Virus record (IMG/VR): IMGVR_UViG_3300042376_001192
Location: 1-22,517 of that record
Reading direction: 5' to 3' (one strand)
Source of the DNA: a virus
DNA length: 22,517 nt
Shown here: positions 3,615-16,899 of the stretch, piece by piece
Layout: each line of letters starts with the position of its first letter
Position numbering within the stretch: the stretch's first letter is position 1
Made by a program: the position numbers and the translations under genes
The notes under the pieces: generated by a model
Told to the model about the DNA's origin: nothing
Database searches by the model: none
What the model saw: the letters and a program-made list of their open reading frames with translations, nothing else

Positions 3615-3890
3615 CTATGTTTTGCAAATGGCGGCATCAAACGCCGGAGGCCGCTTCTCCGGACAAGCGCAGAAGATTGCGTTGTTGTGGTCCCCGATTG
3701 CCTCGGCGGTCGGGAGCGTCAGCACGTCGCCGCGCGAGATCAGGATCGGCGTCCCCGTGGTGCAGAGCACTTCCTTCCACACCGCCCCGCTAGTCGCGGA
3801 AATGATATTCGGGGAGGCTTTTGGTTCCGTCTGGCAGCTCGACAACAGCGGTATGGCTGCGCACAGCGTCAGCCTCGCGAACGACTTCAT
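3615..3890 (-). CDS. Rz1: Rz1-like outer-membrane spanin lipoprotein candidate, 91 aa
   Basis: The protein begins MKSFARLTLCAAIPLLSSC: a signal peptide ending in a lipobox (L16-S17-S18-C19), so it should be lipidated at Cys19 and sorted to the outer membrane. Its first third lies inside the 3' end of the Rz-like gene in another frame (overlap 3790-3890), the classic overlapping Rz/Rz1 arrangement. Residues around 52-70 (ISRGDVLTLPTAEAIGDHN) match a pattern (I-S-R-x-D-x-L-T...T...I...HN) I recognise from small lipoproteins in phage lysis cassettes. It would complete the spanin complex that disrupts the outer membrane. It is not strikingly proline-rich, unlike lambda Rz1. Confidence 0.75.
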   Translation of the reverse strand: MKSFARLTLCAAIPLLSSCQTEPKASPNIISATSGAVWKEVLCTTGTPILISRGDVLTLPTAEAIGDHNNAIFCACPEKRPPAFDAAICKT

Positions 3891-4092
3891 TGGTGTTTTC
3901 CGTGATCTGGGTGAGGACTTCTGACTCTACCTGCGCGGCTTCGATGTCGCGCGCGTCGTTCACTTCCCTGCGGATGCGCTTGTCGTGCTGCGACAGCAGG
4001 AACTTGCCGGTTAGCGCCATCATGAACAGCGCGCCGCACCACATGAGCGCAGTGCGCGCCCATTGTGGCAGGCCCATCCACAGCGCCATCAT
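3790..4092 (-). CDS. Rz: Rz-like inner-membrane spanin candidate, 100 aa
   Basis: The start forms an ATGA overlap with the lysozyme stop. One N-terminal membrane span (about residues 12-30, ARTALMWCGALFMMALTGK) is followed by a charged helical periplasmic part (about 35-75, KRIRREVNDARDIEAAQVES and onward), typical of an i-spanin. It directly follows the lysozyme and has a lipoprotein gene embedded in its 3' end, so the lysozyme-Rz-Rz1 order is conserved. It would span the periplasm together with the lipoprotein in the last step of lysis. The assignment rests on topology and context, since spanins share little sequence. Confidence 0.75.
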   Translation of the reverse strand: MMALWMGLPQWARTALMWCGALFMMALTGKFLLSQHDKRIRREVNDARDIEAAQVESEVLTQITENTNEVVREADAVRSHTAVVELPDGTKSLPEYHFRD

Positions 4093-5255
4093 TTGAGAGG
4101 CCGTGTCGCTTTGCGTTCGCCCCAGTGCTGGACGGCTTCCCCGATCACCATGACCATGAAGCCTGAGAACATCTCCATCACGAGCGGATCAGAAACAGCC
4201 CCAAGAACCGCGTTGCTGCCAGTTTTGAGCATCCACACACGGCCCGCCACAACCAGGAGAAGGCCCCAAAATCGGCGGGAGTAGATCATCGACTTGGCAG
4301 ATGATGACCACTCCTCCGACTTTCTCGCAGCGTCTACAGCGCCGGTCTGTTGGCCGATGGGAACGGGCGGATCTGGCAAACCTGGCGGCGGCGCAGGCTT
4401 AACCGGCGGCGGTGGCGGCTGGGGAGCCGGGACCACCACCGCCGGCCCTGCGACCACGGGACCACTCGGCGGCGCAGGAACGGGCGCAGATACCAGCGGA
4501 GGGGGGCTGGGCTGGGGGGCTTGCTTCTCCGCTGGCTCCGCATCGCCCTCCGCCTCAATCACAGAGGTCGGGGGTTCAGCTTGTTTCGCGATCAGTTCGG
4601 ACCACTGTTTCTTGAGAATGTGAGACGTGTCGGGCGGCTTCGACGTGTCGAGCCGCGCACGCATGAGGGTGTCTTCCAGAGACGTGCTTTCGTTCGTGTC
4701 GATCTTGCCAGCGTCATCGACAGATAGCTGGACCACGCTGATCGAACAGGCGTTCTCCCACGGGAGGTCGCAGAACAGGCACGCCTCAGCCAGCCTTCGC
4801 CGGTAGAGGCCCTTGAGCGGCTTGCCACCTGCGCGGCAGTTGCGCGGGAACTGCAACAGCGCCGAGCCGTAGCTGCCTGGCGTCATCACCTTGCCCGCGT
4901 CTGTCACGCCGCCATTAAGGCAAGCTTTCAGGCTTTTGGGTATATAGCCTAGATTGAAGACCAAACTTGCGAGGGCATCGAACTCGCCTTGCGTGAGCGG
5001 CACTGTGATCTGGTCCCGCACAATCTGCGCGTGTCGTGCCACGTCTTCGTCAAGCAGTGCGTCGGCTTCAGCGAGCGTGATGCGCTTGCCGACAACCGCG
5101 ACCGGCCCGGTCCTGCCGTATCCGATGGTCGGGATGCCGATAGGGTCGAGGTATCCCGTGAGGCTTAGCCCCTCGAAGTGCCGGATAAGGTCTAGCGCGG
5201 CCTTCGACGGATACAGCTCACTCGGCGGCCTTCGGCGGAGAATTTCTATCGCCAT
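4089..5255 (-). CDS. GH24 (T4-type) lysozyme with proline-rich linker and C-terminal membrane segments, 388 aa
   Basis: The phage endolysin cleaves the MurNAc-GlcNAc bonds of peptidoglycan. The catalytic triad is visible as E28, D37 and T43, with the same 9- and 6-residue spacing as T4 lysozyme E11/D20/T26, in 'HFEGLSLTGYLDPIGIPTIG'. 'DALASLVFNLGY' and 'YRRRLAEACLF' are further family motifs within the first 170 residues. Beyond the catalytic domain come a polar linker, a very proline-rich stretch (about 246-305) and two hydrophobic segments (about 329-343 and 353-375) ending in a basic tail. Usual phage GH24 enzymes are about 150-180 aa, so this is more than twice as long. The start has GGAGG nine bases upstream and overlaps the previous gene by 38 bases. 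Confidence 0.9.
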   Translation of the reverse strand: MAIEILRRRPPSELYPSKAALDLIRHFEGLSLTGYLDPIGIPTIGYGRTGPVAVVGKRITLAEADALLDEDVARHAQIVRDQITVPLTQGEFDALASLVFNLGYIPKSLKACLNGGVTDAGKVMTPGSYGSALLQFPRNCRAGGKPLKGLYRRRLAEACLFCDLPWENACSISVVQLSVDDAGKIDTNESTSLEDTLMRARLDTSKPPDTSHILKKQWSELIAKQAEPPTSVIEAEGDAEPAEKQAPQPSPPPLVSAPVPAPPSGPVVAGPAVVVPAPQPPPPPVKPAPPPGLPDPPVPIGQQTGAVDAARKSEEWSSSAKSMIYSRRFWGLLLVVAGRVWMLKTGSNAVLGAVSDPLVMEMFSGFMVMVIGEAVQHWGERKATRPLK

Positions 5256-6231
5256 CGTTCTTGTCCTCCGAGAGATCGGCTTTGGTTTCGGTTCGCGCCT
5301 TGCGCATGTCTTCGATCAGGCGGCGGCGCGATGTGGTGCGCCCGCCCTTTGCGCCGTTTTCCTGCGCTTCCTTGCGCTTGCTCATACCCATCTGGACCGC
5401 AAGCAAGGCTTGCGCGCCGACAGAGCCGCACGCCTCGAGCAGGATTACCCAGAACAGCGCGAACATGTCCCGGAAGGTCACGCCATCGAAGCCGGGGAAA
5501 TAGCGCGCGGGAGCCTGGAACACGGCGGGCAAGGCCGGATCGCCAATGGCGGCTTCCGTCGCCTGCTGACGTGCGCCGAGGCGGTCTGTCTCTGCGGCCG
5601 CAATCTTCGCGTCCTGCTCGTCCAGCTTGGCTTGCGCCTCGGTCTGGTACTGCGCGATGTTTTTCTCGTAGCTCGAGACGTCATCATTCTTGCTGTTGCC
5701 GTCATCAAGGACAAGGTTCATCGACTGACGCGCGGCTGCTACCAACTGGTCACGGTCGGCGCGGATCGCCACCTTTTCCTTTTCGGCACGCGCGATGATC
5801 GTGTCGGCGCTTTCCGTCGATGCGCTTTCCGTCTGCGTGATCGCGGCGCCTTTGCGGTAATGGTAGTCATTGCCCTCGGTGACGAAGCCGAGCGCCGCGA
5901 CACCGCAAGCCACAAGCCCCATAACCCAGATGAAGCGCAGCGTGCGGCCGGCAGCGGGGTTCAGCTTGTTGGTCTTCATCCAGACGATTGCCAGACCGCC
6001 GAAGATGACGAACGTCCTGAACACGATCCCCGCAGCCATGAAGCTGGCTTCCATGCCGGGCGGCGCGAGGCTGGAGTAGAACTGGCTGTCCCAGACGTAG
6101 AGCGTCAGGCACGCCACCACGACAGCGGCCCAGAGCGCCGAGAACGTCACGAAGGACACGGTGAACGCGGGAGCGTGATCCCTGACCCACCGGCCAGCAG
6201 ACGCCCACTCTGCTTTCGTGGGGGCTCTCAA
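5218..6231 (-). CDS. Multi-span membrane protein with a central coiled-coil region, 337 aa
   Basis: No ATG is suitably placed. I choose TTG at 6231, which overlaps the upstream stop as TTGA and has AAGGGG seven bases upstream. Three predicted spans lie at about 23-46, 64-85 and 98-117. A largely helical soluble region follows (about 130-215, rich in E, K, Q and A), then a fourth span at about 256-281 and a basic/acidic tail (KRKEAQENGAKGG, then charged). The layout of three spans, coiled coil and one span is reminiscent of DUF4407-like membrane proteins, but I cannot confirm this. It precedes the lysozyme gene and overlaps its start by 38 bases. It could be a lysis-timing or exclusion protein; function unknown. 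Confidence 0.75.
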   Translation of the reverse strand: MRAPTKAEWASAGRWVRDHAPAFTVSFVTFSALWAAVVVACLTLYVWDSQFYSSLAPPGMEASFMAAGIVFRTFVIFGGLAIVWMKTNKLNPAAGRTLRFIWVMGLVACGVAALGFVTEGNDYHYRKGAAITQTESASTESADTIIARAEKEKVAIRADRDQLVAAARQSMNLVLDDGNSKNDDVSSYEKNIAQYQTEAQAKLDEQDAKIAAAETDRLGARQQATEAAIGDPALPAVFQAPARYFPGFDGVTFRDMFALFWVILLEACGSVGAQALLAVQMGMSKRKEAQENGAKGGRTTSRRRLIEDMRKARTETKADLSEDKNDGDRNSPPKAAE

Positions 6232-6635
6232 CGCCCCACCCCTTGAAACTCGGCCCAGCGTTCCAGGCCAAGCTGCATCACCGCGAAGCAACCCACGGCC
6301 ATAAGCGCCCAGCCAAAAGCGGGAATTCGTGACCAGCCGTTGATTTTCTGGCTGTCCTGCACCTGCGCGACTTCACGCTTGTGGACTGACAAGTCGGTGC
6401 GCAAATGCTCGATTGTCTCAATCAGCTTCTGGAGGCTGTGCCGGACTTCCTGGCTATCGGATTGGAGAGAGGCCAGCTTCACCCTCATTTCGGATTCGAG
6501 GGCTGTGACCTTCGCAGCTACTTGCTCCACGTCTTCTCCGTTAGCCTTGCGTTTCCGCAGTTGTTCAAAATCCTCCGCAACCTCACGCAATTCACGCTTG
6601 AGCGCCTTGAAGCGCTCATTGAAATCGTCATCCAT
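6228..6635 (-). CDS. Coiled-coil protein with C-terminal membrane anchor, 135 aa
   Basis: About residues 3-98 are charged and predicted helical with heptad-like leucines and valines, making a long coiled coil. They are followed by a single hydrophobic segment (about 105-124, PAFGWALMAVGCFAVMQLG) and a short tail. This is a tail-anchored topology with the coiled coil probably facing the cytoplasm. Small tail-anchored coiled-coil proteins are common in phage lysis regions and some are annotated only as hypothetical. The start at 6635 has AAAGG upstream. Its stop overlaps the TTG of the next gene. Confidence 0.75.
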   Translation of the reverse strand: MDDDFNERFKALKRELREVAEDFEQLRKRKANGEDVEQVAAKVTALESEMRVKLASLQSDSQEVRHSLQKLIETIEHLRTDLSVHKREVAQVQDSQKINGWSRIPAFGWALMAVGCFAVMQLGLERWAEFQGVGR

Positions 6636-7241: not shown

Positions 7242-7349
7242 CTACATGTTCGAGATGAGGTTCACGCCGAGCCAGATCATGCCAACAAATATGGCTGCTA
7301 TGATCGCGCCAAGAATGCAGCCAAGCGCGCCCGCTTTGTCCGTAGACAT
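7242..7349 (-). CDS. Small single-span membrane protein, 35 aa
   Basis: The ATG at 7349 shares its A with the tailspike stop (TGATG), indicating coupled translation. The peptide has a polar N-terminus (MSTDKAGALG) and a single hydrophobic span 'CILGAIIAAIFVGMIWLGV', ending NLISNM. It is the first of a run of membrane proteins in the distal late operon. It might act as a small holin or antiholin-like peptide; this is inference from size, topology and location. Confidence 0.6.
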   Translation of the reverse strand: MSTDKAGALGCILGAIIAAIFVGMIWLGVNLISNM

Positions 7350-9553
7350 CAATAGCCTCCGAACAGGATACAGCGCAACGTAATCGATCCGCCAAGGCGG
7401 TTCTCGATGTAAACAATTCGCGTTGAGGTATCGATTGAGATGTTGAGCCGCGCGTCGGTTCCGGTCGTGCCTGAAAGGATGCCCGTGGTCAGCACCACGT
7501 TGGCGCTTGCAGAAATGCTGGTCAGCGATGGCGTGCCTGCGCACTCAAACAAGATGATTGCATATTCCGCCGTGGTTGCGACGAACAGGAAGCCACACTC
7601 ACCGGCACTGAAGGCTGTAATCGCCTGCGCGGTATCATCCAAGAACGTTCCACTTGGAAGGAAGCCGCGCAGGGGAACGCCACCTGCCGCCCCGCCAGCG
7701 CCCGTCAGCTTGAGAGCTGAAACCGTTCCAACGGTTGTGGTATTGGACCCAGCCGACGCCGCGACCTCTCCCGTCAGCGCCGATCTCTGAATGCCGCCAG
7801 AGCCAGTAAACTCGATGCCGCCGCTAACCGTGATCTCTTCCGCAGGGCCAGCCGCTGCCGTGTCGCGACCAAACAAGCGATCGGTGGCCGACGACCACGC
7901 GCCATAGGGCGTGCCGTCCGTGCGAACGCCGCTGAACCTGCCAACCGTCGTGCCGGGGTTTGGATGATACAGGACCGCTGTGTTGACGTGACCGACCCCG
8001 CCAATGTTGGCTCCGATCTGCATCTGCACTGCGGCGCCGGTGTTGTTGTAGACCGTGTACGCCGCCTGGTAGGTCGCCCCCGCCTTGCCACGCAGGGTAA
8101 CGTTGTCCACAACGCCCGTGATCGTGCCATCAAGCTTCACGCCGTACTGGACCGCATCGCTCGGCTGGAAGTCGTAAATCGTTAGGCCATCGACGCGGAG
8201 GCTGGACACCACGCCGGACCCTGTCTGTGAGATGTTGACAGGTGACGCCCGCGCGCCGCTACAAAATCCTGAGATATCGATGGCAGTGTAGCCGAAAGAT
8301 GCATTATTGCCGGCAACGATCTGCGCCACAATGCTATTGGTCGCTGCGGTGACTGATGAGCATGTCCCGCGAAGGCTCCATTTCTCACCGCCGCCGTTGA
8401 CCGCAGCAGCCTGCACCTCGCTGTAGATGCCGCCGCCGACCATCTGGTCATCGCGACTGGTTTCGTCCTTGTCATAGTTGACCAGACGCGCATCAACCGC
8501 CTTGATGCCCCAGTCAAATGTATCCCACTGCGAATTGACGCGGTTGAGCGAGTCAAACCGCCGGTTAGCCGCAGCGAAGCTGGATTGCTGCCCAGATGTC
8601 AGACGAAGCACCACGACCTCCGCCGCCACGTTGACCGCATCGCCCGTGAACTTGTCGCAAATGCCGTAATAAATGCCTAGCGAGCCATCGCCCTGAACCG
8701 CGTCAGAGTGGCCGCCTGATGCGTTCGTCCGCATCGCGACTTCGCAAGTATTGGTCCAGATGTAACTATGGTACGTGTCCGCTGGGTTGCCCCACTTGTG
8801 CCACTGCCAGACATTGAGCGCGCGAATGTCCAGCGTCTTGAAGTCGCGAACGCCACGCGTGTAGAACACGGGCTGGTTGGCCGTCGTGCCGCCGTTGATA
8901 AGCCCACCATGACCGCGAATGGTCACGTTTTGCATGAGCACCGTACCGTCGCCAAACGTGAATAGCGCGCCGCCCGTGTAGCCCTGCACGATGGTCGCGC
9001 CAGCCATGTCGAGTTCAAAGAAGTTTTTCCCCGTGCAGGTGACAGCCGTGCTGATCGTGTAACTGACGCCAGCCCTAAGCCGGCATCTCCCGTTATTTGT
9101 CGGCATCGCCGCGAACATGGCCGTAAAAGCCGCGCCCCAATCCGCAGACGTGCCAAACATTTCCGGGGTCAGAATATCAACGTCAGCCCCGAGAACTGTG
9201 GGCCAGTTGGAGCCAAGGTCCGTCGCAAGCGGCGCCGCCCAGCTTGTGTCGATCAGGATGCCGTTTGAGTAAGTGACCGTCAGAACCCCGCCGACCACTT
9301 CGGCTTCCCACAGCGTTGTCGCGCCGTCAGAGGTTGTGACTACCCATTCGTATTCGATGGCGTCGTTGAAATAGAAGGACAGCCGGCCGTCAGCGTCACC
9401 GACATAGGGGTTGGTTGTCGGGGTCGCGAGGCCGACATCGGAGTAAAGCGGGCTGCGGGTCGTGGTGTTGCGGAGGTAGCTGTTGAACTTGCAGCCGGAC
9501 GCAGGCCCGCCACCTGATGCGACCATGTTTGCAACAAAGGCAACTGCGGCCAT
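7349..9553 (-). CDS. Tailspike protein with right-handed beta-helix, 734 aa
   Basis: Receptor-binding tailspike, most likely trimeric and possibly a polysaccharide-degrading enzyme. Residues 1-95 form an N-terminal module with 'LYSDVGLATPTTNPYVGDAD' and GRLSFYFND, a pattern recurrent at the start of phage tailspikes. About residues 130-560 are Gly/Asn/Val/Thr-rich with short strands, as in pectin-lyase-like beta-helices (GKNFFELDMAGATIVQGYTG, then a glycine-rich GHGGLING turn). The C-terminal part (about 590-734) ends with 'DARLNISIDTSTRIVYIENR', a beta-sandwich-type ending seen in other phage spikes. It follows the ejection genes, the place of gene 9 in P22. The start has TTGGAGC eight bases upstream, and a terminator-like hairpin lies just before that. 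Confidence 0.85.
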   Translation of the reverse strand: MAAVAFVANMVASGGGPASGCKFNSYLRNTTTRSPLYSDVGLATPTTNPYVGDADGRLSFYFNDAIEYEWVVTTSDGATTLWEAEVVGGVLTVTYSNGILIDTSWAAPLATDLGSNWPTVLGADVDILTPEMFGTSADWGAAFTAMFAAMPTNNGRCRLRAGVSYTISTAVTCTGKNFFELDMAGATIVQGYTGGALFTFGDGTVLMQNVTIRGHGGLINGGTTANQPVFYTRGVRDFKTLDIRALNVWQWHKWGNPADTYHSYIWTNTCEVAMRTNASGGHSDAVQGDGSLGIYYGICDKFTGDAVNVAAEVVVLRLTSGQQSSFAAANRRFDSLNRVNSQWDTFDWGIKAVDARLVNYDKDETSRDDQMVGGGIYSEVQAAAVNGGGEKWSLRGTCSSVTAATNSIVAQIVAGNNASFGYTAIDISGFCSGARASPVNISQTGSGVVSSLRVDGLTIYDFQPSDAVQYGVKLDGTITGVVDNVTLRGKAGATYQAAYTVYNNTGAAVQMQIGANIGGVGHVNTAVLYHPNPGTTVGRFSGVRTDGTPYGAWSSATDRLFGRDTAAAGPAEEITVSGGIEFTGSGGIQRSALTGEVAASAGSNTTTVGTVSALKLTGAGGAAGGVPLRGFLPSGTFLDDTAQAITAFSAGECGFLFVATTAEYAIILFECAGTPSLTSISASANVVLTTGILSGTTGTDARLNISIDTSTRIVYIENRLGGSITLRCILFGGY

Positions 9554-9571
9554 GTCGTCGGCTCCAATGCG

Positions 9572-9594
9572 AAAAGCCCCGCGCGAAGCGGGGC
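9572..9594 (-). terminator. Intrinsic terminator-like hairpin in the tailspike leader
   Basis: On the - strand a perfect 7-bp GC stem (GCCCCGC / GCGGGGC, arms at 9588-9594 and 9576-9582) with a 5-base loop is followed by TTTTC. It lies downstream of the ejection gene that ends at 9784 and only about 22 bases before the tailspike ATG at 9553. On the + strand there is no T-run after the stem, so it should act mainly on late - strand transcripts. The T-tract is only four bases, so it may be partial. Confidence 0.7.
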
Positions 9595-9661
9595 CGGGTC
9601 GTTTGTGGTGGGGGTGGGAGAAACGTGTTAGCTTGCGCGCCTGATTTGGAGGCGGGGGCGT

Positions 9662-9787
9662 ATGGGACTTATCGGGCTGGGCTTGTTGCTTTTCGGGCTA
9701 TACTGGGGCCTTGGCGTGTGGCCGTTCGCCTTCTGCCTCGTGGGCATCGTCCTGCTTGTAGGGGAAGACTATAAGCGCCGTCGCTAG
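9662..9787 (+). CDS. Opposite-strand small hydrophobic protein, 41 aa
   Basis: ATG at 9662 has a near-ideal GGAGG (9648-9652) nine bases upstream. The peptide starts MGLIGLGLLLFGLYWGLGVW, continues with a second hydrophobic stretch (PFAFCLVGIVLLVG) and ends in a charged tail EDYKRRR. It probably forms a two-helix membrane hairpin. It is the only + strand gene within the late region; its TAG overlaps the TAG of the opposing 746-aa gene. It occupies the only sizeable gap of the late operon, like a 'moron' insertion. No clear sigma-70 promoter is seen upstream. Function unknown. Confidence 0.55.
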   Translation: MGLIGLGLLLFGLYWGLGVWPFAFCLVGIVLLVGEDYKRRR

Positions 9788-12024
9788 TCGTTGTTGCGCG
9801 GGGCCAGTGCATTGGTCGGCGGTCCCTGCGGCGTCGTTGGCGTTCCAACATTGAGCGCATTGCGTGGGGGGCGGTTGCCGTAGATGCGGGCGAGGTTTTC
9901 GTCAGTCGCGCCGCCGTAGAGAATGTCGGCCATGAGGTCGCGTTGGGGCTTGTTGAAGGAGCCGCTACGGGACATCGCTGCAAGGATCGTGGCGAGCGGG
10001 TTTGTCTTGAACGCCAACGCGGTCTGCGCCATTTCGGCAGCGTTCTGGATGCCGCCAGCGCCGCCCATTCCTGCCTGCGATGTCGCAGAGCCGACGTTGG
10101 GATTGCGGCGCTGCGCGTTCTTGATGATGACCTGATCCGCACGGATGCGGGCAACCAGGTTATCAGCAACGTCCTTGTCAAACACAGCGCCGAGGATTTC
10201 GCGCATCCGCTCGCTTGCGATGCCGTCAATCCCGCGCCCCTTCTCGATGTCCAGCGCCAGCTTTTCTATGGCGCCCATCTGCAAGGCGGTCAGCGGCTTG
10301 CCTTTCAGCCCTGAAGCAAGCGCGCGGACACGCTCAACAAGCATGTTACCGGCTGCAACTTCTGCGCCTTTGGTGCGCGCGCCCTTCATCCGTGGCGCGT
10401 CGGCTCCTTCGCGGACTGCCGCGTACTCAGGCATCAGTTCGTCAAGTTCTTTGACAACCGCCTCGCGCGCTCTCAAAAGAGCTTCGCTTGGCCTGCTGCC
10501 GCTGGAGAAAGCCTTGTCGATTGGCCGGTCCAGCGCACGCTTGACCAGATCCCAAGTGCGGGCGTTGCTGGGGGTTTGCCCTGCGGTTGTGGCAAGGCTT
10601 TCCGCCTCATTGATAGCGGCGCGAACATACTTCCCGACGATCCTGTCATCCGCGAGCTGCATAAGACGCTCAGAGTTAACGCCTGCGTTGTCTGCAAACA
10701 GTTTCTCATAAGCCGGGCTGATTTCCTCGGATGCCTGCTTGATGGCAGCGTCAAGATCGGCTGCAACGCTCGCAGGGTTGATGTTCGTAGTTTCCTGAAC
10801 ATCAGAGAACAGACGTCCCGTCCGCGTGCGGAACACGTCGTCTGCCTGCTGCATCGCCAGTTCAGGGGCGTTGCCCGGAAGGCGCGAGAGGCCAACGCCG
10901 AGGTTCTGCGCTTGCTGCGTGGCGTCGGCCAGAGACACAGGCTTATCGCCATACTGCGCGTTAAGGCTTGCTTTGACTTCATCAGCGGTCTTGCCCAGCG
11001 GCGCCAGCGCGTTCTTGAGAACGTTGGACACCACGCGCTCATCAAACCCTTTTGGGCGGAATGGCTTCACGGCAGCACGAAAGCCACGCGCGGCAAGGCG
11101 CGGGGCGATCATTCCGGCAATCGCACCAGTACCCGGATTGATGATGTCGGGACCACCGCCTTCGTTGCCGTCTCCCGGCGCCGCAAGCGCGTCTCCAGCG
11201 CTGCCCGCAAACGCACCGACACTGCCGCCAACGATCCTGTCGGCATTGTTCTGCAAGAAGCTGCTCGCCTTGGGCTCTGCGGGGGCGCTGAAGGGCGCGG
11301 GCTGCGGCTGTGGGGCTGCGGCTTGCGCGACAGGCTTGCCCCCAGGCGGGGCTCTGGTGGCCTGCACGGCTGCGCGTTCTGCGCCGGCAAGCGTGGTCGG
11401 CGCAAGCGCATTGCGGGGGCCAGCCATGCCGCGAAGCGTCATCGAGCCGGGAAGCATCTGAAGCGCGGCAAAGCTGCCATCTATCGACGCCTGCTGCGCG
11501 CCTTGGGCGGCTTTGCCCATGTCGCCTTCGATGAGGCCCGCGCCAGCGTCACGCAGGCCCAAATAGGCGCGGCCCGCCTCGTCCACGGGGCTGATGAACT
11601 CGACAGCCTCGACAGCGCCGCGCACGGGGTCGCGCGTTGTGGTTTTCGCCCAGCCTTCCAGACGGCCGCCCGTCAGGCCCGCAATCGGAGCCTCGAGGCC
11701 GCGCATCACATCGGTGAAAACATTCGGCTGGGACGTGTCGCCCGTAAGCGGTCCTGTGACTTGCTGCGGTTGCGCCCTCGGCTTGGAAAAGCCGCCAGTG
11801 CTGGCGGGGGCCAACGGGTCAGGAACATAGCCCATTGCCCTCATGCGCTCGGCATTTGGCGGCTTGGCAATGAACGCTTCGTAGCCGCCAGGAATGTTCG
11901 CTGCGGCTTCCTCAATGATAGCGTCAGTCTCGGAGCGGAGGGACGGCCCGGCTTCCGCCTCGGCGCGTTTCCGCTTCGCCTGCGCAATCGCAAGCGCTCT
12001 CTGTTGTTCGATTGTGAGCGGCAT
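9784..12024 (-). CDS. DNA-ejection (internal virion) protein, P22 gp16 position, 746 aa
   Basis: A large, Ala/Gly/Pro-rich, mostly helical protein with no signal peptide. The N-terminus (QQRALAIAQAKRKRAEAEAG) is a charged helix. About residues 255-310 are Gly/Ala-rich and could insert in a membrane (IVGGSVGAFAGSAGDALAAP, and later GAIAGMIAPRLAARGF). The C-terminal half is long helices containing 'EEISPAYEKLFADNAGV', which resembles phage ejection proteins I have seen (S-P-A-Y-E-K-x-F). It is third in a row of three large proteins between the tail hub genes and the tailspike, matching the P22 order gp7-gp20-gp16. It would be carried in the virion and ejected with DNA to help cross the cell envelope. 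The start shares its A with the previous stop (TAATG). Confidence 0.7.
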   Translation of the reverse strand: MPLTIEQQRALAIAQAKRKRAEAEAGPSLRSETDAIIEEAAANIPGGYEAFIAKPPNAERMRAMGYVPDPLAPASTGGFSKPRAQPQQVTGPLTGDTSQPNVFTDVMRGLEAPIAGLTGGRLEGWAKTTTRDPVRGAVEAVEFISPVDEAGRAYLGLRDAGAGLIEGDMGKAAQGAQQASIDGSFAALQMLPGSMTLRGMAGPRNALAPTTLAGAERAAVQATRAPPGGKPVAQAAAPQPQPAPFSAPAEPKASSFLQNNADRIVGGSVGAFAGSAGDALAAPGDGNEGGGPDIINPGTGAIAGMIAPRLAARGFRAAVKPFRPKGFDERVVSNVLKNALAPLGKTADEVKASLNAQYGDKPVSLADATQQAQNLGVGLSRLPGNAPELAMQQADDVFRTRTGRLFSDVQETTNINPASVAADLDAAIKQASEEISPAYEKLFADNAGVNSERLMQLADDRIVGKYVRAAINEAESLATTAGQTPSNARTWDLVKRALDRPIDKAFSSGSRPSEALLRAREAVVKELDELMPEYAAVREGADAPRMKGARTKGAEVAAGNMLVERVRALASGLKGKPLTALQMGAIEKLALDIEKGRGIDGIASERMREILGAVFDKDVADNLVARIRADQVIIKNAQRRNPNVGSATSQAGMGGAGGIQNAAEMAQTALAFKTNPLATILAAMSRSGSFNKPQRDLMADILYGGATDENLARIYGNRPPRNALNVGTPTTPQGPPTNALAPRNND

Positions 12025-13442
12025 TACTGGAACAGCGCTTTCTGTTCAGGCGTCATGAACTCCCAATCGGCGGCGTCCACACCGTCAGGCACGCCCGCTG
12101 GCTGCGGCTTGGCTAGCAGAAACGGCACGCCCTCTCGCGTCCGTGTTGAGCCCGTAGCGCCTGCCGGCCGTCCCGGCAGAACGGGGGCTTTGACCGACTT
12201 CTGACGGGCGATCTGGATGCCCTTCTGATAGTAGCGCTGCAATTCGTCCATCGCCTTGAGCGCTTCGCCAACCGTGATGTCCTGATTTTGCAGGCGCGTG
12301 ACGGCTGCGGTTGCGGCCCTGCCTTCCGTCTCGGTGATGGCGCCGCCGCCCTTGAGCTGGTCGAACGCGTTGAGGAAGGCTTGGCTGACAATCTGATTGA
12401 TAAGCCCCTGCACGTCCGCGCCATCGGTGCCGGGGATCGCGTACAGCTTGCCCTGCATCCCGAAGCGCTGGCCGATGTTGCGGCTCTTGAGGTCTGCAAT
12501 AGAGTTGATGGCGAGGCTTGCGCGCTGTTCCACGGTCGGCAGATCGAACGCCGCTTGGCCCTGTGCCTTGCCCTGAACTTCAGCACTCGCCACAGCCGCA
12601 CGGTTGCCCGCAACGTCTGCGATGGGCGCAAGCTCCGAGGTCGCCAGCGTGCGCTTGTCCACCGCGACGGGAACGCCGCCGACGTTGGAAAGCTGCGGCG
12701 GGATGTAAGCCGTGCGGCCCGTTCCCTGCGCACGGCCATCCGACATGACAACCATCTGCTCGCCAGTGTTGGCGTCGATGAAGCCTTGGAACGCTCGCGC
12801 CGTCTCAGCTTCGCTGCTGCCCTCGAACACAACTTTCCAGCCGCCATCGGCCTGACGCTCAACAATCTGATTGCCGAGCTTCTGGATTTCGGGACCTTGG
12901 CTGGTCTGCGGTGATGGCTCGCGCACAAGCTCCATCTGGCCCGTGGTCGGGTTGAACGAACCTACGCCACCATCGCCAAGGTTGACGCTCTGATACTGCA
13001 CGGGCTTCGCCACTTCCGGCGAAATCCCCGCCTGCGCCGACAGCGCCGCGATCTGGCCGTCTAGCTCTTGATCCGAGAACTTTGACACGTCCAGCGGCAT
13101 CTGCGAGACGTCCTGCCCGATGATCTTGCTGATGGTCGGCGCGTTCTGCTGCCACCACTGGCCGCGCTGCGCTTCGGGGATCGCGCGTTGCTGCTGCATG
13201 AGCGCGAGCGTCTGTTTCAGCTTGTCGCCTTCTGCGGTTTTCGCCTCGGCCTGGCTGGCCTTGTAGCCTTCCGGGTCAAAGCTCTTGCGGAAGGCGTTCA
13301 GCCCGCCGCCGATTGCTTGCATTAGTGCATTGTTCGGCGGGGCAGGCATGGACTGTTGCAGGCCCATTGATCCGGTCGGGTTCATCGGGGCCGGCGCAGG
13401 CCCGCCCATTGGCTTCGGTGCAAGCGGGTTCTGCATCATCAT
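12024..13442 (-). CDS. DNA-ejection protein, P22 gp20 position, 472 aa
   Basis: I choose the ATG at 13442, forming ATGA with the previous stop; more ATGs follow at once and the frame opens slightly upstream. The N-terminus is Pro/Met-rich, then comes a helical Gln-rich region (LKQTLALMQQQRAIPEAQRG) and a strand-rich middle (about 165-260). The C-terminal region contains 'QAFLNAFDQLKGGGAITETE' followed by GRAATAAVTRL, a motif I recognise from many phage virion or injection proteins (A-F-x-x-L-K-G-G-G-x-I-T-E-x-E-G-x-x-A-T). Length is close to P22 gp20 (about 470 aa). It lies between two other ejection-type genes. Confidence 0.75.
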   Translation of the reverse strand: MMMQNPLAPKPMGGPAPAPMNPTGSMGLQQSMPAPPNNALMQAIGGGLNAFRKSFDPEGYKASQAEAKTAEGDKLKQTLALMQQQRAIPEAQRGQWWQQNAPTISKIIGQDVSQMPLDVSKFSDQELDGQIAALSAQAGISPEVAKPVQYQSVNLGDGGVGSFNPTTGQMELVREPSPQTSQGPEIQKLGNQIVERQADGGWKVVFEGSSEAETARAFQGFIDANTGEQMVVMSDGRAQGTGRTAYIPPQLSNVGGVPVAVDKRTLATSELAPIADVAGNRAAVASAEVQGKAQGQAAFDLPTVEQRASLAINSIADLKSRNIGQRFGMQGKLYAIPGTDGADVQGLINQIVSQAFLNAFDQLKGGGAITETEGRAATAAVTRLQNQDITVGEALKAMDELQRYYQKGIQIARQKSVKAPVLPGRPAGATGSTRTREGVPFLLAKPQPAGVPDGVDAADWEFMTPEQKALFQ

Positions 13443-14575
13443 GTAGACCACCACTTATTTTTGTTGCCGTAGTCCACGATACCGCCGACAGCATCGCTGA
13501 TGCCGGTCCCATAGCCCTTGTATGCGGATGAAAGCGCATTGGCTCGAGCATCACCGGCTTTCATCATCGCATTGCCCGCGTTGACGCCGTAGTTGCCCGC
13601 AGCGTTGGACGCGAGCTGCGAACTGGTCTGGTTCATGCCTGCCAAGTCAGCGAGACGGTTCGTGTAGTCGCCAAACGCGCCATAGGTGTTGCCCGCTAAG
13701 GTCTTCGCATAACGCCCCTCTGCGGCCCCGCTGATCGACTTGCCGGCCGCGCCGAGGTTGCCCTTGATCTGGTCGAACTGCTGGTCATTGATGGTCGTCG
13801 CCAATTTGGCATAGGGCGAGGCGTAGAACTCCGCGAGCGGGTTGGACGCGCCGCCCTGCATCTGCTGCGCGCCGCCTGTGGGCATCGTGCCTTTGGTATC
13901 GCCGCCAAGAGCCTTGAGAGGAGTTGCCGCCCACGCGCCACCGCCACCTTTTGCGTGCCAGTCCGCATAGGCGTCACGGTTGTTGCCGAACAGCGCCTTG
14001 ATCTGCGGCTTGGCCCACTCTTCCTGCAAGCCAGGGCTTTGCATGTAGGCATCATAATCAAAGCCGCCCGGAGCCTGCGTCTGTACCGTTTTCCAGTTGT
14101 CCCCACCGTCGCGGATCATGCCGCCCAGCGCGCCGCCGACAGCGCTGCCGAGAGGACCGCCTAGGAATGTGCCAGCGATGCTTCCGACAGCGCCCGCAGC
14201 CGCGTTGGAGCCACCGCCGCCTGAATAGCCCTGAACAGGCTGGCCTGCGCCGAGGTTCGGCAGCATCTGCGAGCCGCCCTGCATGTTCATCCCGCCGCCA
14301 CCATACGCCGCCTGATAGTCCTGCGGGGCGATGCCGAACAGCGCAGCGAGCTTGTTGGAGGCAGCGCCGCCGGTCATGTACCCGGGCGAGGCAAGCCCGC
14401 GCTGGTCCATGTAGATCTGGCGCTGAAGCGCGGTCGTCTGGTTCGCCGCGTCCTGCTGCGCTTTGGCTGACGCTTGCCCGCCTTGGCCTTGCATGTAGCC
14501 GCCAGCCAGAGACGCGCCCGCATTGATCAGCGCGGGGGCGTTATCTATGGCGAACTTGGCGATTTGATCCCACAT
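13439..14575 (-). CDS. DNA-ejection protein, P22 gp7 position, 378 aa
   Basis: A Gly/Ala/Gln-rich protein starting 'MWDQIAKFAIDNAPALINAG'. A glycine-rich possible membrane-active segment follows at about 125-155 (AAGAVGSIAGTFLGGPLGSA, continuing VGGALGGMI). The middle contains W residues in 'DAYADWHAKGGGGAWAATP' and the C-terminal helical part is rich in Ala, Asn and Gln. N-terminal W-x-x-I-x-K-F-A plus a Gly-zipper segment is typical of phage internal or DNA-transfer proteins. It is first of the three ejection-type genes. It starts two bases after the previous stop and its stop overlaps the next start. Confidence 0.7.
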   Translation of the reverse strand: MWDQIAKFAIDNAPALINAGASLAGGYMQGQGGQASAKAQQDAANQTTALQRQIYMDQRGLASPGYMTGGAASNKLAALFGIAPQDYQAAYGGGGMNMQGGSQMLPNLGAGQPVQGYSGGGGSNAAAGAVGSIAGTFLGGPLGSAVGGALGGMIRDGGDNWKTVQTQAPGGFDYDAYMQSPGLQEEWAKPQIKALFGNNRDAYADWHAKGGGGAWAATPLKALGGDTKGTMPTGGAQQMQGGASNPLAEFYASPYAKLATTINDQQFDQIKGNLGAAGKSISGAAEGRYAKTLAGNTYGAFGDYTNRLADLAGMNQTSSQLASNAAGNYGVNAGNAMMKAGDARANALSSAYKGYGTGISDAVGGIVDYGNKNKWWST

Positions 14576-14576
14576 T

Positions 14577-15119
14577 TTACGAAATCTCCGCTATAGAGAC
14601 GCCGACAGTCGTTGACGCCGTGGCGGCCAGTGAATCAGTCGCCGTGCAACGCCAGACCGCCGTAAAATCCTGGCCAAGCGCCGTAATAGTGCCGCTGAAT
14701 GTCGTCGTGACCGCAGTTGGCGAGCCCGCTGTAAACACCGCATCGCCTGACACATAAGCCCATGCGTAAGTGTAAGGGCCAGTGCCGCCCGATGCCGTCA
14801 CGGTCACGGAATTTGTCGTCACCGATCCTGTACCGAGCCGTGAACCAAAAACCCCCGACCTGTTGGCTGAAAGCGTGAACGAGAGTGCTGCGTCGGCAAC
14901 ATCCGTTGCAGCCTGCGCCGCCGCATCCGCCGTAGCCTGTGCTGCCGCCGCATCGGCCCGCGCCTGTTCCGCAGCAAGTGCCGCCGCCGCCACGCCGCTG
15001 TTTACGTTTGTCGTGAAGGACACGCCGCCCGTCAGGTACTTGTACCACTCAGGCGTTAATCGCCCGTCCTTGTCCACAAGCGGCACGGCCAGCGATGGCG
15101 GTTTAGGAGCCCGCGCCAT
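14577..15119 (-). CDS. Virion protein with coiled coil and Ig/PKD-like domain, 180 aa
   Basis: The ATG at 15119 shares its A with the tail hub stop (TGATG). The N-terminus has 'PLVDKDGRLTPEWYKYLTG' (about 13-31), a short motif (P-L-V-D-x-x-G-x-x-T-P-E-W-Y) that I know from several phage structural proteins. An alanine-rich coiled coil follows (about 43-80), then a strand-rich domain (about 83-180) with 'SGGTGPYTYAWAYVSGDAVF', typical of PKD/Ig-like folds. It occupies the position of the P22 tail needle gp26 but does not resemble it beyond having a coiled coil. It could be a short fibre or needle-like tail tip, or a decoration protein. Confidence 0.75.
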   Translation of the reverse strand: MARAPKPPSLAVPLVDKDGRLTPEWYKYLTGGVSFTTNVNSGVAAAALAAEQARADAAAAQATADAAAQAATDVADAALSFTLSANRSGVFGSRLGTGSVTTNSVTVTASGGTGPYTYAWAYVSGDAVFTAGSPTAVTTTFSGTITALGQDFTAVWRCTATDSLAATASTTVGVSIAEIS

Positions 15120-16543
15120 CACAGATCCTCATTGACGAGGACGCCCAGATAGGCCGCCGGCGCGGGGTCGGATTTGCTGAACTGGAACACCATGCCCGCG
15201 AGCTTCGTGCGCCCGCAGCGATGCCAGACCGTCCGTTGATCGTAGACACCCTGCGCGCCGAGCTTGCGGTCGCGCCAGTTTGTCCACGTATTGCCGCCGT
15301 CCACTGACGCGCGCATCCGCACGATAGGGTCAACACCCTGTCCCGTCGCCACGCCAACGCCCTTGGAGCTTTCCAGCCGCAGCGTCGTGATGGGCAGGCT
15401 GTCCGGTGCGCCCGACAGATGCGCCGTGAACTCGCGAACGATCTCGGTTCCCATCGTGGAGGCGGTCGCCATGCTCTCGGACGTGTAGTCCCGGCTCAGT
15501 TCGTCAAATTGTCCCGTGCCGTCGCAGACAAACACGCGGCCCGCTGCCGTGATGATGTCCGTGTAGCGCCACGAGTTTTGCAGGTTCGTCCCGCGCGTGT
15601 GCCATTCCTGCGTCAGCACGTCGAAGATCATGCAAGCCGTAGGCGTCCGGTAGCTGACGAAGATATGCCCCCGGTCCTGGTACGTCTTGCCGATGATGTT
15701 TGCAGCGCCTGCACTGCGCAGCGCCGCAGATACCCACGGCTCGGACACGATGGGCGAGCCGCCCTGCCCCAGCCTGCGGACATTGAACGCCTCGTCCACG
15801 AAGAACAAGCTGTTATCGGCCTTGACGATGCCGTCACGGCACGCGCAGCCAACCTGCTGCGTCATGCCTCCCTGCATGGCAAACGGGTCGGCGCTGTCGC
15901 CGGTCTGCGACCAAACTTCAATCGTCTGCGAACCCAGCAGGTAGTAGAACTCGCCCAGCACGCGGCCGGCGACGATATCGTCAGGCGAACTCTCTGCCGT
16001 GTAGTAATTCAGCGCCGTGACGTCATCGAGGTCGAGAACCGCCGTAAAGCCAAAGCGGTTCTTATAGGTGAACAGCCCGCGCTGCCCGAGCGTGTCAACC
16101 GACGTGAACGCGGTTGCCCCTGCATCGCTCAGAAGCGTTGCATACTGCGCATCCGTCACCGCAGCGATGGCCGTCCCGGTCGAGACGTACAGCCCGCCAT
16201 TGAACAGGCCAAAGCCCTCGGTTTCCGTGAATGCGAAATCCCCGCGATCCGTCCCGCTGATGGTCCCCGTAAGGCTGCTTGTCGTGTTGGAGCTAGGCAC
16301 AAACGTCGATAGCGTTGTCCCCTGCGCGATCAGCACGTTGCCCGAGGCGTGACCGTCTGCCTGCCACATCCCTCGGCACGCGCCGGCGAAGTCGGCACGC
16401 TGGAGAGTGCCAGGCGCTTCGATCAGCACGTTCTCGCGCGTGGGGTCGTTCGGATGCGGCTCGCGGTAGACGTTGTGGCACTTCTTCTCGGCAAGCCCCG
16501 TGACAACAGCGGAGGCTGCGGAAGTCGCCATTGGCACGCGCAT
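15119..16543 (-). CDS. Packaged-DNA stabilisation protein, P22 gp10-like tail hub, 474 aa
   Basis: In P22, gp10 forms a hexameric hub below the portal and gp4, closing the head after packaging. I start at ATG 16543, which overlaps the previous TGA (TGATG), although the frame is open further upstream. The length (474) is almost that of P22 gp10 (472). Features in common include 'SQTIEVWSQTGDSADPF' mid-protein followed by a GI-x-K segment, an 'ESSKGVGVATGQG' stretch, and the C-terminal end 'YDQRTVWHRCGRTKLAGMVF', which parallels YDKRVLWKRVGRIRRLIGF of P22 gp10. The N-terminal region has 'VYREPHPNDPTRENVLIEAP'. It is adjacent to the gp4-like gene, as in P22. Confidence 0.88.
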   Translation of the reverse strand: MRVPMATSAASAVVTGLAEKKCHNVYREPHPNDPTRENVLIEAPGTLQRADFAGACRGMWQADGHASGNVLIAQGTTLSTFVPSSNTTSSLTGTISGTDRGDFAFTETEGFGLFNGGLYVSTGTAIAAVTDAQYATLLSDAGATAFTSVDTLGQRGLFTYKNRFGFTAVLDLDDVTALNYYTAESSPDDIVAGRVLGEFYYLLGSQTIEVWSQTGDSADPFAMQGGMTQQVGCACRDGIVKADNSLFFVDEAFNVRRLGQGGSPIVSEPWVSAALRSAGAANIIGKTYQDRGHIFVSYRTPTACMIFDVLTQEWHTRGTNLQNSWRYTDIITAAGRVFVCDGTGQFDELSRDYTSESMATASTMGTEIVREFTAHLSGAPDSLPITTLRLESSKGVGVATGQGVDPIVRMRASVDGGNTWTNWRDRKLGAQGVYDQRTVWHRCGRTKLAGMVFQFSKSDPAPAAYLGVLVNEDL

Positions 16544-16899
16544 CAGAAATACTCGGCCCGGGTCGGCTTGTTGAACCGCTCGCCGCTCTGAACCAGACGC
16601 CGCAAGTTGCGTTCGGCTGTCGGCTCGTAAGTCTGCCGGAACGATGCGGCCTGCCCGCCGTCCATGTAGTCGTCTGCCGCGTGGCAGGCGACATACATAG
16701 CCAAATCCTCGAGCATCGATTGCGGACATGCGCTGTCGGACCAGTAGGCAATGCCGAGGTCGCGCAGCTTCTCGTTGACGCTGGCAATCAGCCCCTCGAT
16801 CAGTGAGCTGTCCTCGGCTTCCGCCGTCTCGCCTGCTTGCAGCACCTTGAGCTTTTGCAGCACGCGGTTGCGCAGCTCGGCAAGGGTCGCGTCAGCCAT
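16543..16899 (-). CDS. P22 gp4-like head-tail adaptor protein, 118 aa
   Basis: A helical protein that in P22 binds the portal ring and stabilises packaged DNA. The sequence runs LAELRNRVLQKLKVLQAGET, then DSSLIEGLIASVNEKLRDLG, then 'MYVACHAADDYM' and a C-terminal helix with 'EPTAERNLRRLVQS' ending NKPTRAEYF. This helix pattern is typical of the gp4/HK97 gp6 adaptor superfamily. It is shorter than P22 gp4 (about 166 aa). It overlaps the previous gene by 8 bases and is followed directly by the gp10-like gene, which makes the assignment stronger than sequence alone. Confidence 0.82.
   Translation of the reverse strand: MADATLAELRNRVLQKLKVLQAGETAEAEDSSLIEGLIASVNEKLRDLGIAYWSDSACPQSMLEDLAMYVACHAADDYMDGGQAASFRQTYEPTAERNLRRLVQSGERFNKPTRAEYF

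What the first reader, a model, noticed from the sequence alone, without database searches (positions are those of the whole stretch)
9662..9787. Isolated + strand hydrophobic peptide gene inside the late region
A 41-codon frame with a near-perfect ribosome-binding site faces against the late operon in its only sizeable gap, next to a terminator hairpin. Its stop codon overlaps the stop of the opposing gene (TAG read on both strands across CTAG). This resembles a moron, possibly a prophage-expressed membrane peptide such as an exclusion factor or toxin.
Basis: partly seen in the sequence, partly recalled or inferred. Interest (0 to 1): 0.5.

Follow-up and report, generated by a model that had tools for sequence, protein, structure and literature searches.

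The report
Small antisense membrane-peptide gene in phage
A phage carries, facing against its virion genes, a real gene for a 41-residue membrane peptide at the spot where Salmonella phage P22 keeps the gene that shuts out competing phages; the peptide matches no family searched here and probably does a similar job, which remains to be tested.

Summary
Window 9662-9787 (+) encodes a 41-residue hydrophobic peptide behind GGAGG; its stop overlaps the opposing gene's stop. Length alone proves nothing, but relatives do: 22 virus contigs (window included) carry an intact copy, down to 56% identity, with purifying selection in this frame. In 21 of 22 it lies antisense, downstream of the same late gene. 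Of 19 relatives of that late gene, 12 have the insert, 5 have an empty site, 2 cannot be judged: it is an optional insert, a moron. All 6 pep1 contigs of 29 kb or more have an integrase match (one below the cut-off).

The late genes run Hc3, gp7-like, gp20-like, gp16 position, [antisense gene], tailspike: the P22 order, with the peptide where P22 has sieA and on the same strand. [quoted passage not shown] I found no sequence similarity to SieA, nor to any named phage, plasmid or family searched. Best reading (0.5): a prophage-expressed inner-membrane peptide excluding related phages at DNA ejection; a toxin or another conversion function stays possible. The slot is known; the peptide family and its small size look new.

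The parts
9662..9787 (+). pep1, 41-codon gene for a hydrophobic peptide with a basic C-terminus
   Evidence: conserved frame under purifying selection
9648..9652 (+). Shine-Dalgarno GGAGG, 9 nt before the ATG
   Evidence: GGAGG in all 13 class A leaders listed
9625..9652 (+). conserved class A leader GTGTTAGCTTGCGCGCCTGATTTGGAGG; its GTGTTA[AG]C[GT]T part is a promoter- or operator-like element (unproven)
   Evidence: in 1.02 Mb of partly redundant loci every hit lies just upstream of class A pep1 or of pep2; class B, C and D pep1 copies lack it
9784..9787 (.). CTAG: overlapping stop codons of pep1 (+) and the gp16-position gene (-)
   Evidence: the same overlap in all 9 contigs where pep1 stands alone (CTAG in 8, TTAG in 1)
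9571..9595 (-). terminator-like hairpin of the late strand, between the moron and the tailspike gene; also at the four empty sites that I read
9784..12024 (-). gene in the position of P22 gene 16 (ejection protein); no family match of its own
   Evidence: P22 order
12024..13454 (-). gp20-like protein (phrog_2534, 'released from the phage upon host infection')
   Evidence: E 5.6e-13; direct comparison with P22 gp20 not significant
13439..14575 (-). gp7-like protein (phrog_598, 'DNA ejection')
   Evidence: E 4.8e-6
15119..16729 (-). head closure Hc3 (P22 gene 10 position)
   Evidence: phrog_578, E 1.4e-62
7349..9553 (-). tailspike-like gene (phrog_14558, matched only near the C-terminus)
   Evidence: E 7e-9

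Best explanation
It is a moron: a gene inserted, facing backwards, between the last ejection-protein gene and the tailspike gene of a P22-like phage of a temperate group. Shown: the peptide is a conserved coding gene, the site can be empty, and long relatives carry integrases. Inferred: the prophage makes the peptide from its own promoter; [quoted passage not shown] On induction, late transcription would run through the gene antisense and turn it off.
For: Coding: synonymous excess and best-conserved frame. Family of four classes, 56-100% identical to the window copy. Position: in 21 of 22 contigs antisense and downstream of the same late gene, directly abutting it in 9 and with a companion gene between in 12, although what lies on the other side differs (tailspike matched in 12, contig end in 1, Hc3 in 8), so the gene stays with the gp16-position gene. 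Optional: 12 of 19 loci occupied, 5 empty, 2 unresolved. Same slot and strand as P22 sieA, a slot described as the 'ant moron' (PMC2629481, passages). [quoted passage not shown] escape mutations map to gp16 and gp20 (PMC10883804, abstract and passages). HK97 gp15, a 62-aa moron product, also lies beside a conduit gene, the tape measure (its exclusion function as stated in PMC10883804). Hydropathy: residues 1-34 average 2.07. Models: two helices 3-17 and 20-44 in class B (pLDDT 75.4, pTM 0.39).
Against: No sequence similarity to SieA and only 41 aa against 164. The gp16-position protein and the gp20-like protein do not align significantly with P22 gp16 and gp20 directly; P22-likeness rests on PHROG matches and gene order. 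One relative (contig 3300025889_000202) lies in another phage, beside a different membrane-protein moron and with no match to the late gene, so the link with ejection genes is not absolute. The promoter-like element is missing upstream of class B, C and D copies and no sigma-70-like site was found. The window peptide itself is modelled as one helix 2-40, not a hairpin (pLDDT 83.6, pTM 0.39), and such models are weak for peptides of this size. No transcript, localisation or plating data. Many of the 22 contigs are close kin, so independent lineages are fewer.
Confidence: 0.5

Rival explanations
1. A membrane-active toxin of type I kind: a small hydrophobic peptide that depolarises the cell, held down by antisense RNA (here possibly the late transcript itself), serving prophage maintenance or abortive infection.
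For: Under 60 aa, hydrophobic with a charged tail; antisense transcription across it is expected from the late operon (inference).
Against: Rfam gives no RNA family in the window, and no antisense RNA gene was looked for otherwise; the leader is short (37 nt from the conserved element to the ATG), without the long structured leader usual for type I toxins (recalled).
Confidence: 0.2
2. Another lysogenic-conversion function in the membrane (for instance altering a host transporter or receptor), unrelated to DNA ejection.
For: Companion genes in the same cassette also look like small membrane proteins (pep2 in 9 of 22 contigs, the 155-aa protein or its relative in 4 of 22), and the 155-aa one also sits in a second antisense slot away from the ejection genes.
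Against: The place next to the gp16-position gene is kept in 21 of 22 contigs.
Confidence: 0.2
3. A lysis protein (holin, antiholin or pinholin).
For: Short hydrophobic peptide.
Against: It lies outside the lysis cluster (endolysin 4089-5255, spanin-like match at 3615-3890) and on the wrong strand for late expression. The phage's holin was not identified, so this is not fully closed.
Confidence: 0.05
4. Not a gene: a chance frame, or only an antisense RNA.
For: Frames of this length are common here (about 81 ATG frames of 35-60 aa per shuffled window).
Against: Purifying selection on the protein and conservation down to 56% identity.
Confidence: 0.03

Closest known systems
sieA of Salmonella phage P22
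   Same: Gene between the last ejection-protein gene (16) and the tailspike gene (9), transcribed against the late operon, membrane protein; optional among related phages (PMC10883804 section 13: 22 of 66 P22-like phages carry it).
   Different: SieA is 162-164 aa with three predicted transmembrane segments (PMC10883804); no sequence similarity; the window moron is one 41-aa gene whose stop overlaps that of the late gene.
'ant moron' region of P22-like phages (PMC2629481, passages read)
   Same: Same slot 5' of the tailspike gene, variable content, absent in some relatives.
   Different: In the 22 contigs the cassette holds pep1 alone or with one further small membrane-protein gene; I recognised no repressor or antirepressor gene in the window's slot, which holds only pep1.
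HK97 gp15 moron
   Same: Very small exclusion moron (62 aa) beside the gene of the DNA conduit protein; blocks DNA injection (stated in PMC10883804).
   Different: Same strand as the late genes, upstream of the tape measure gene, with a putative terminator annotated; long-tailed phage. Sequences were not compared; the original paper is not held.
Type I toxin peptides (TisB, Hok, Ldr; recalled)
   Same: Short, hydrophobic, charged tail.
   Different: No antitoxin RNA recognised (Rfam only); kept in a phage late-region slot.

Membership tests
phage moron | extra gene between two genes that are adjacent in relatives | tested here: met
   of 19 relatives of the neighbouring gene 12 occupied, 5 empty, 2 unresolved
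phage moron | own promoter | tested here: inconclusive
   no sigma-70-like site; conserved GTGTTA[AG]C[GT]T element upstream of class A copies only
phage moron | own terminator | tested here: inconclusive
   of the scan's + strand hits in 8500-11000, one lies inside pep1 and one upstream at 8910, none after its stop; a hairpin plus T-run follows the 155-aa gene in L069 (read by eye)
phage moron | expressed from the prophage | not testable with these tools
   needs strand-specific RNA-seq; integrase match in 8 of 23 pep1 contigs (7 over the cut-off), and in 6 of 6 of those 29 kb or longer (5 over the cut-off)
SieA | located between ejection gene 16 and tailspike gene 9, antisense | tested here: met
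   gp16 identity by position only (not significant)
SieA | sequence similarity, including the FxRYPxEAxxFNK motif | tested here: not met
   motif from PMC10883804 section 13, absent from the peptide by eye
SieA | inner-membrane protein with three or more transmembrane segments | tested here: not met
   hydrophobic, but room for one or two short helices only
SieA | blocks DNA injection of related phages | not testable with these tools
   needs plating and K+ release assays
type I toxin | antisense RNA antitoxin | tested here: inconclusive
   no Rfam match; the late transcript would be antisense, untested
holin | in the lysis cassette, late expressed | tested here: not met
   opposite strand

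The most novel reading that the evidence does not exclude
The peptide founds a new family of minimal (41-45 aa) superinfection-exclusion proteins that plug or misassemble the ejection conduit of short-tailed phages, reached independently of SieA at the same genomic slot and strand, showing that one helical hairpin is enough to block DNA entry.
Probability: 0.38. Interest if true: 0.62.

Novelty: new member of a known kind. Interest (0 to 1): 0.36.

Why it matters
If it excludes phages, it would be a very small protein that stops DNA ejection of short-tailed phages, and a handy probe of how ejection conduits cross the inner membrane. It would also show that the sieA slot beside the ejection genes is used by unrelated exclusion proteins in phages far from the enterobacterial P22 group. 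Even without that, it is a protein family with no match in the libraries searched, and one that gene callers can miss because it is short and antisense.

Tried and rejected
Named relatives of the peptide: none in phages (class A, class B) or plasmids (class D only); none in Pfam, PHROGs, NCBIfam or PADLOC for classes A and B except one sub-threshold Pfam hit for class B (TgpA_N, E 0.058); one chance-level hit in solved structures (E 1.5). The 155-aa protein: no match in phages or plasmids. pep2: one chance-level phage hit (E 4). Host: two scans of genome contigs, with the peptide alignment and with the neighbour's alignment, gave no relative, and no tRNA was found in four stretches of two long relatives, so the host is unknown. 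The named phages nearest by coat protein are distant (best 49.5% to Pseudanabaena phage Pam1).

Homology of pep1 to pep2, and of pep1, pep2 or the 155-aa protein to SieA: not supported. Direct comparison of the gp16-position and gp20-like proteins with P22 gp16 and gp20: not significant; gp7-like E 0.007 over 52 residues.

The 155-aa membrane protein looked at first like the partner of pep1. In the 20 of 23 loci that I mapped, pep1 was recognised beside it in 3, while 12 share a 124-aa neighbour next to a terminase-like gene (terminase named by eye), so I treat it as a separate moron. A sigma-70 promoter for pep1: none found. Paper searches for a small exclusion protein of this kind listed nothing on this peptide (listings only, except the two papers cited).

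Full report
The window is a 22,517-base virus record; it holds no integrase match. At 9662-9787 on the + strand there is a 41-codon frame, MGLIGLGLLLFGLYWGLGVWPFAFCLVGIVLLVGEDYKRRR, with GGAGG 9 nt before the ATG and an in-frame TAG 33 nt upstream. Its own TAG overlaps the stop of the minus-strand gene 9784-12024 in CTAG. A hairpin with a U-run lies at 9571-9595 and serves the minus strand.

Frame length is no evidence in this sequence: shuffled windows held about 81 ATG frames of 35-60 aa each. The pairing of an SD with GRAVY >= 1.0 did not occur in 60 shuffles; one other frame of this size in the window is equally hydrophobic. What settles it is the relatives. Scans of IMG/VR found the peptide in 22 contigs with an intact copy, window included, plus one cut by a contig end. 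They fall into four sequence classes: A (window type, 41 aa, 88-100% to the window), B (45 aa, 66-68%), C (45 aa, 56%) and D (44 aa, about 59-62%). Eighteen columns are invariant, among them a central G-L-G-x-x-P-F-x-F and R-R near the end.

In class A the window and L008 differ by six synonymous and one non-synonymous change, L015 and L016 by 13 and 5; in class B, L013 and L019 differ by 9 and 1. Over all 55 pairs of 11 distinct copies pN/pS runs from 0 to 0.55, the highest values between classes A and B. Under equal rates the chance of so few non-synonymous changes is 0.018 to 5.8e-5 in the seven pairs that I tested (chosen by me, and not independent). Of the six frames, +0 keeps the highest amino-acid identity within A (0.96), within B (0.99) and between A and B (0.70); the next best, the antisense frame that shares its wobble positions, has 0.95, 0.95 and 0.57. 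The gene therefore encodes a protein under selection. Many contigs are close kin, so the number of independent lineages is smaller than 22.

Position. In 21 of 22 contigs the peptide gene lies antisense and downstream of a relative of the window's 9784-12024 gene. It stands alone in 9 of 22, its stop overlapping that of the late gene each time (CTAG in 8, TTAG in 1); it has a second small membrane-protein gene (pep2, about 59 aa) behind it in 9 and a 155-aa membrane-protein gene behind it in 3; in the 22nd contig it follows a relative of the 155-aa gene, in another phage with no match to the late gene. On the far side the next late gene is matched as tailspike in 12, the contig ends in 1, and it is an Hc3-like gene in 8. 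The moron thus stays with the gp16-position gene while the other neighbour changes.

The site can be empty. Of 19 loci carrying a relative of the late gene, 12 have pep1 (one copy cut by the contig end), 5 (L005, L006, L007, L010, L011) go from the stop of that gene to the next frame within 48-69 bases, with the late-strand hairpin kept in the four that I read (L006, L007, L010, L011), and 2 (L004, L020) cannot be judged. Optional presence at a fixed site is the mark of a moron.

Leader. The block GTGTTAGCTTGCGCGCCTGATTTGGAGG is the same in the class A copies except the L015 and L048 contigs (one change), and several pep2 genes have a related block at a similar distance from their start. In 1.02 Mb of fetched, partly redundant loci the element GTGTTA[AG]C[GT]T or its pep2 variant occurs only upstream of class A pep1 or of pep2; class B, C and D copies of pep1 lack it, and so does pep2 of L054. 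The pattern was derived from those sites, so this shows specificity, not function. No sigma-70-like promoter was found.

Temperate phages. A phage integrase (PF00589) match is found in 8 of the 23 contigs with pep1, 7 over the curated cut-off, and in all 6 of those that are 29 kb or longer, 5 over the cut-off.

What it works like. The late genes of the window run, in transcription order: Hc3 (phrog_578), a further small gene, a gp7-like 'DNA ejection' gene (phrog_598), a gp20-like gene 'released from the phage upon host infection' (phrog_2534), the 9784-12024 gene, and a tailspike-like gene (phrog_14558). In P22 the record shows 10 (Hc3), 26, 14, 7 ('DNA ejection'), 20 ('released from the phage upon host infection'), 16, sieA on the opposite strand, orf59a, mnt, arc, ant, and 9 (tailspike). 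The peptide gene has the place and strand of sieA. The 2008 genome paper on phage epsilon34 (PMC2629481, passages) names this slot the 'ant moron', variable and absent in some P22-like phages. P22 SieA (PMC10883804; abstract, sections 13 and 20, passages; [quoted passage not shown] escape mutations lie in gp16 and gp20. HK97 gp15, 62 aa, also sits beside a conduit gene and blocks DNA injection (stated in PMC10883804).

From this I infer that pep1 is a prophage-expressed inner-membrane peptide that excludes related phages at the ejection step. Shown: gene, family, site, optional presence, temperate setting of the long relatives. Inferred: membrane insertion (hydropathy), hairpin form (helices 3-17 and 20-44 modelled for class B; but a single helix 2-40 for the window copy), expression in the lysogen, and the exclusion itself.

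Against it: no similarity to SieA; the direct comparison of the gp16-position and gp20-like proteins with P22 gp16 and gp20 is not significant; one relative lies away from the ejection genes; the promoter-like element is not shared by all classes; no experiment. A type I-like toxin and other conversion functions stay open.

Novelty. The slot and the kind of gene are known. The peptide family was not found in the named phages, plasmids, four family libraries, solved structures or genome contigs searched (not every class was put to every collection), and the paper searches listed nothing on it. I file it as a new member of a known kind.

Noticed in passing
L008 9319-9495 (-), L015 9235-9411 (-), L050-L059: A second small antisense membrane-peptide gene, pep2 (about 59 aa, MKLWxAGL..FGVYGFFPASFQTW..), lies behind pep1 in 9 of 22 contigs; in L059 pep2 is present and no pep1 was recognised.
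   Followed up: partly
L082-L104: A 155-aa membrane-protein gene, also antisense: of 20 mapped loci (of 23), 12 share a 124-aa neighbour beside a terminase-like gene (named by eye) and 3 have pep1 beside it, one of them in another phage, contig 3300025889_000202.
   Followed up: partly
window 9784-12024 and relatives L005, L006, L008, L010, L011, L013, L015, L019: Open frames of the gp16-position gene range from 735 to 1420 aa with exchanged C-terminal extensions; the one in L005 resembles ADP-ribosyltransferase of polyvalent proteins (ART-PolyVal, E 1.3e-6, just under the curated cut-off).
   Followed up: no
L013, L014, L019 (class B contigs): The Hc3-like frame is open backwards through the antisense of pep1 (MPTAVKRNGQPPKP.. 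and similar), so an automatic caller may start it inside pep1 and hide the peptide gene; the likely start is MAPLRLL (inference).
   Followed up: partly
window 4089-6291: The endolysin frame (4089-5255) has a hydrophobic stretch near its C-terminus (by eye) and overlaps a 357-aa frame (5218-6291) without a convincing family match; the holin was not identified.
   Followed up: no
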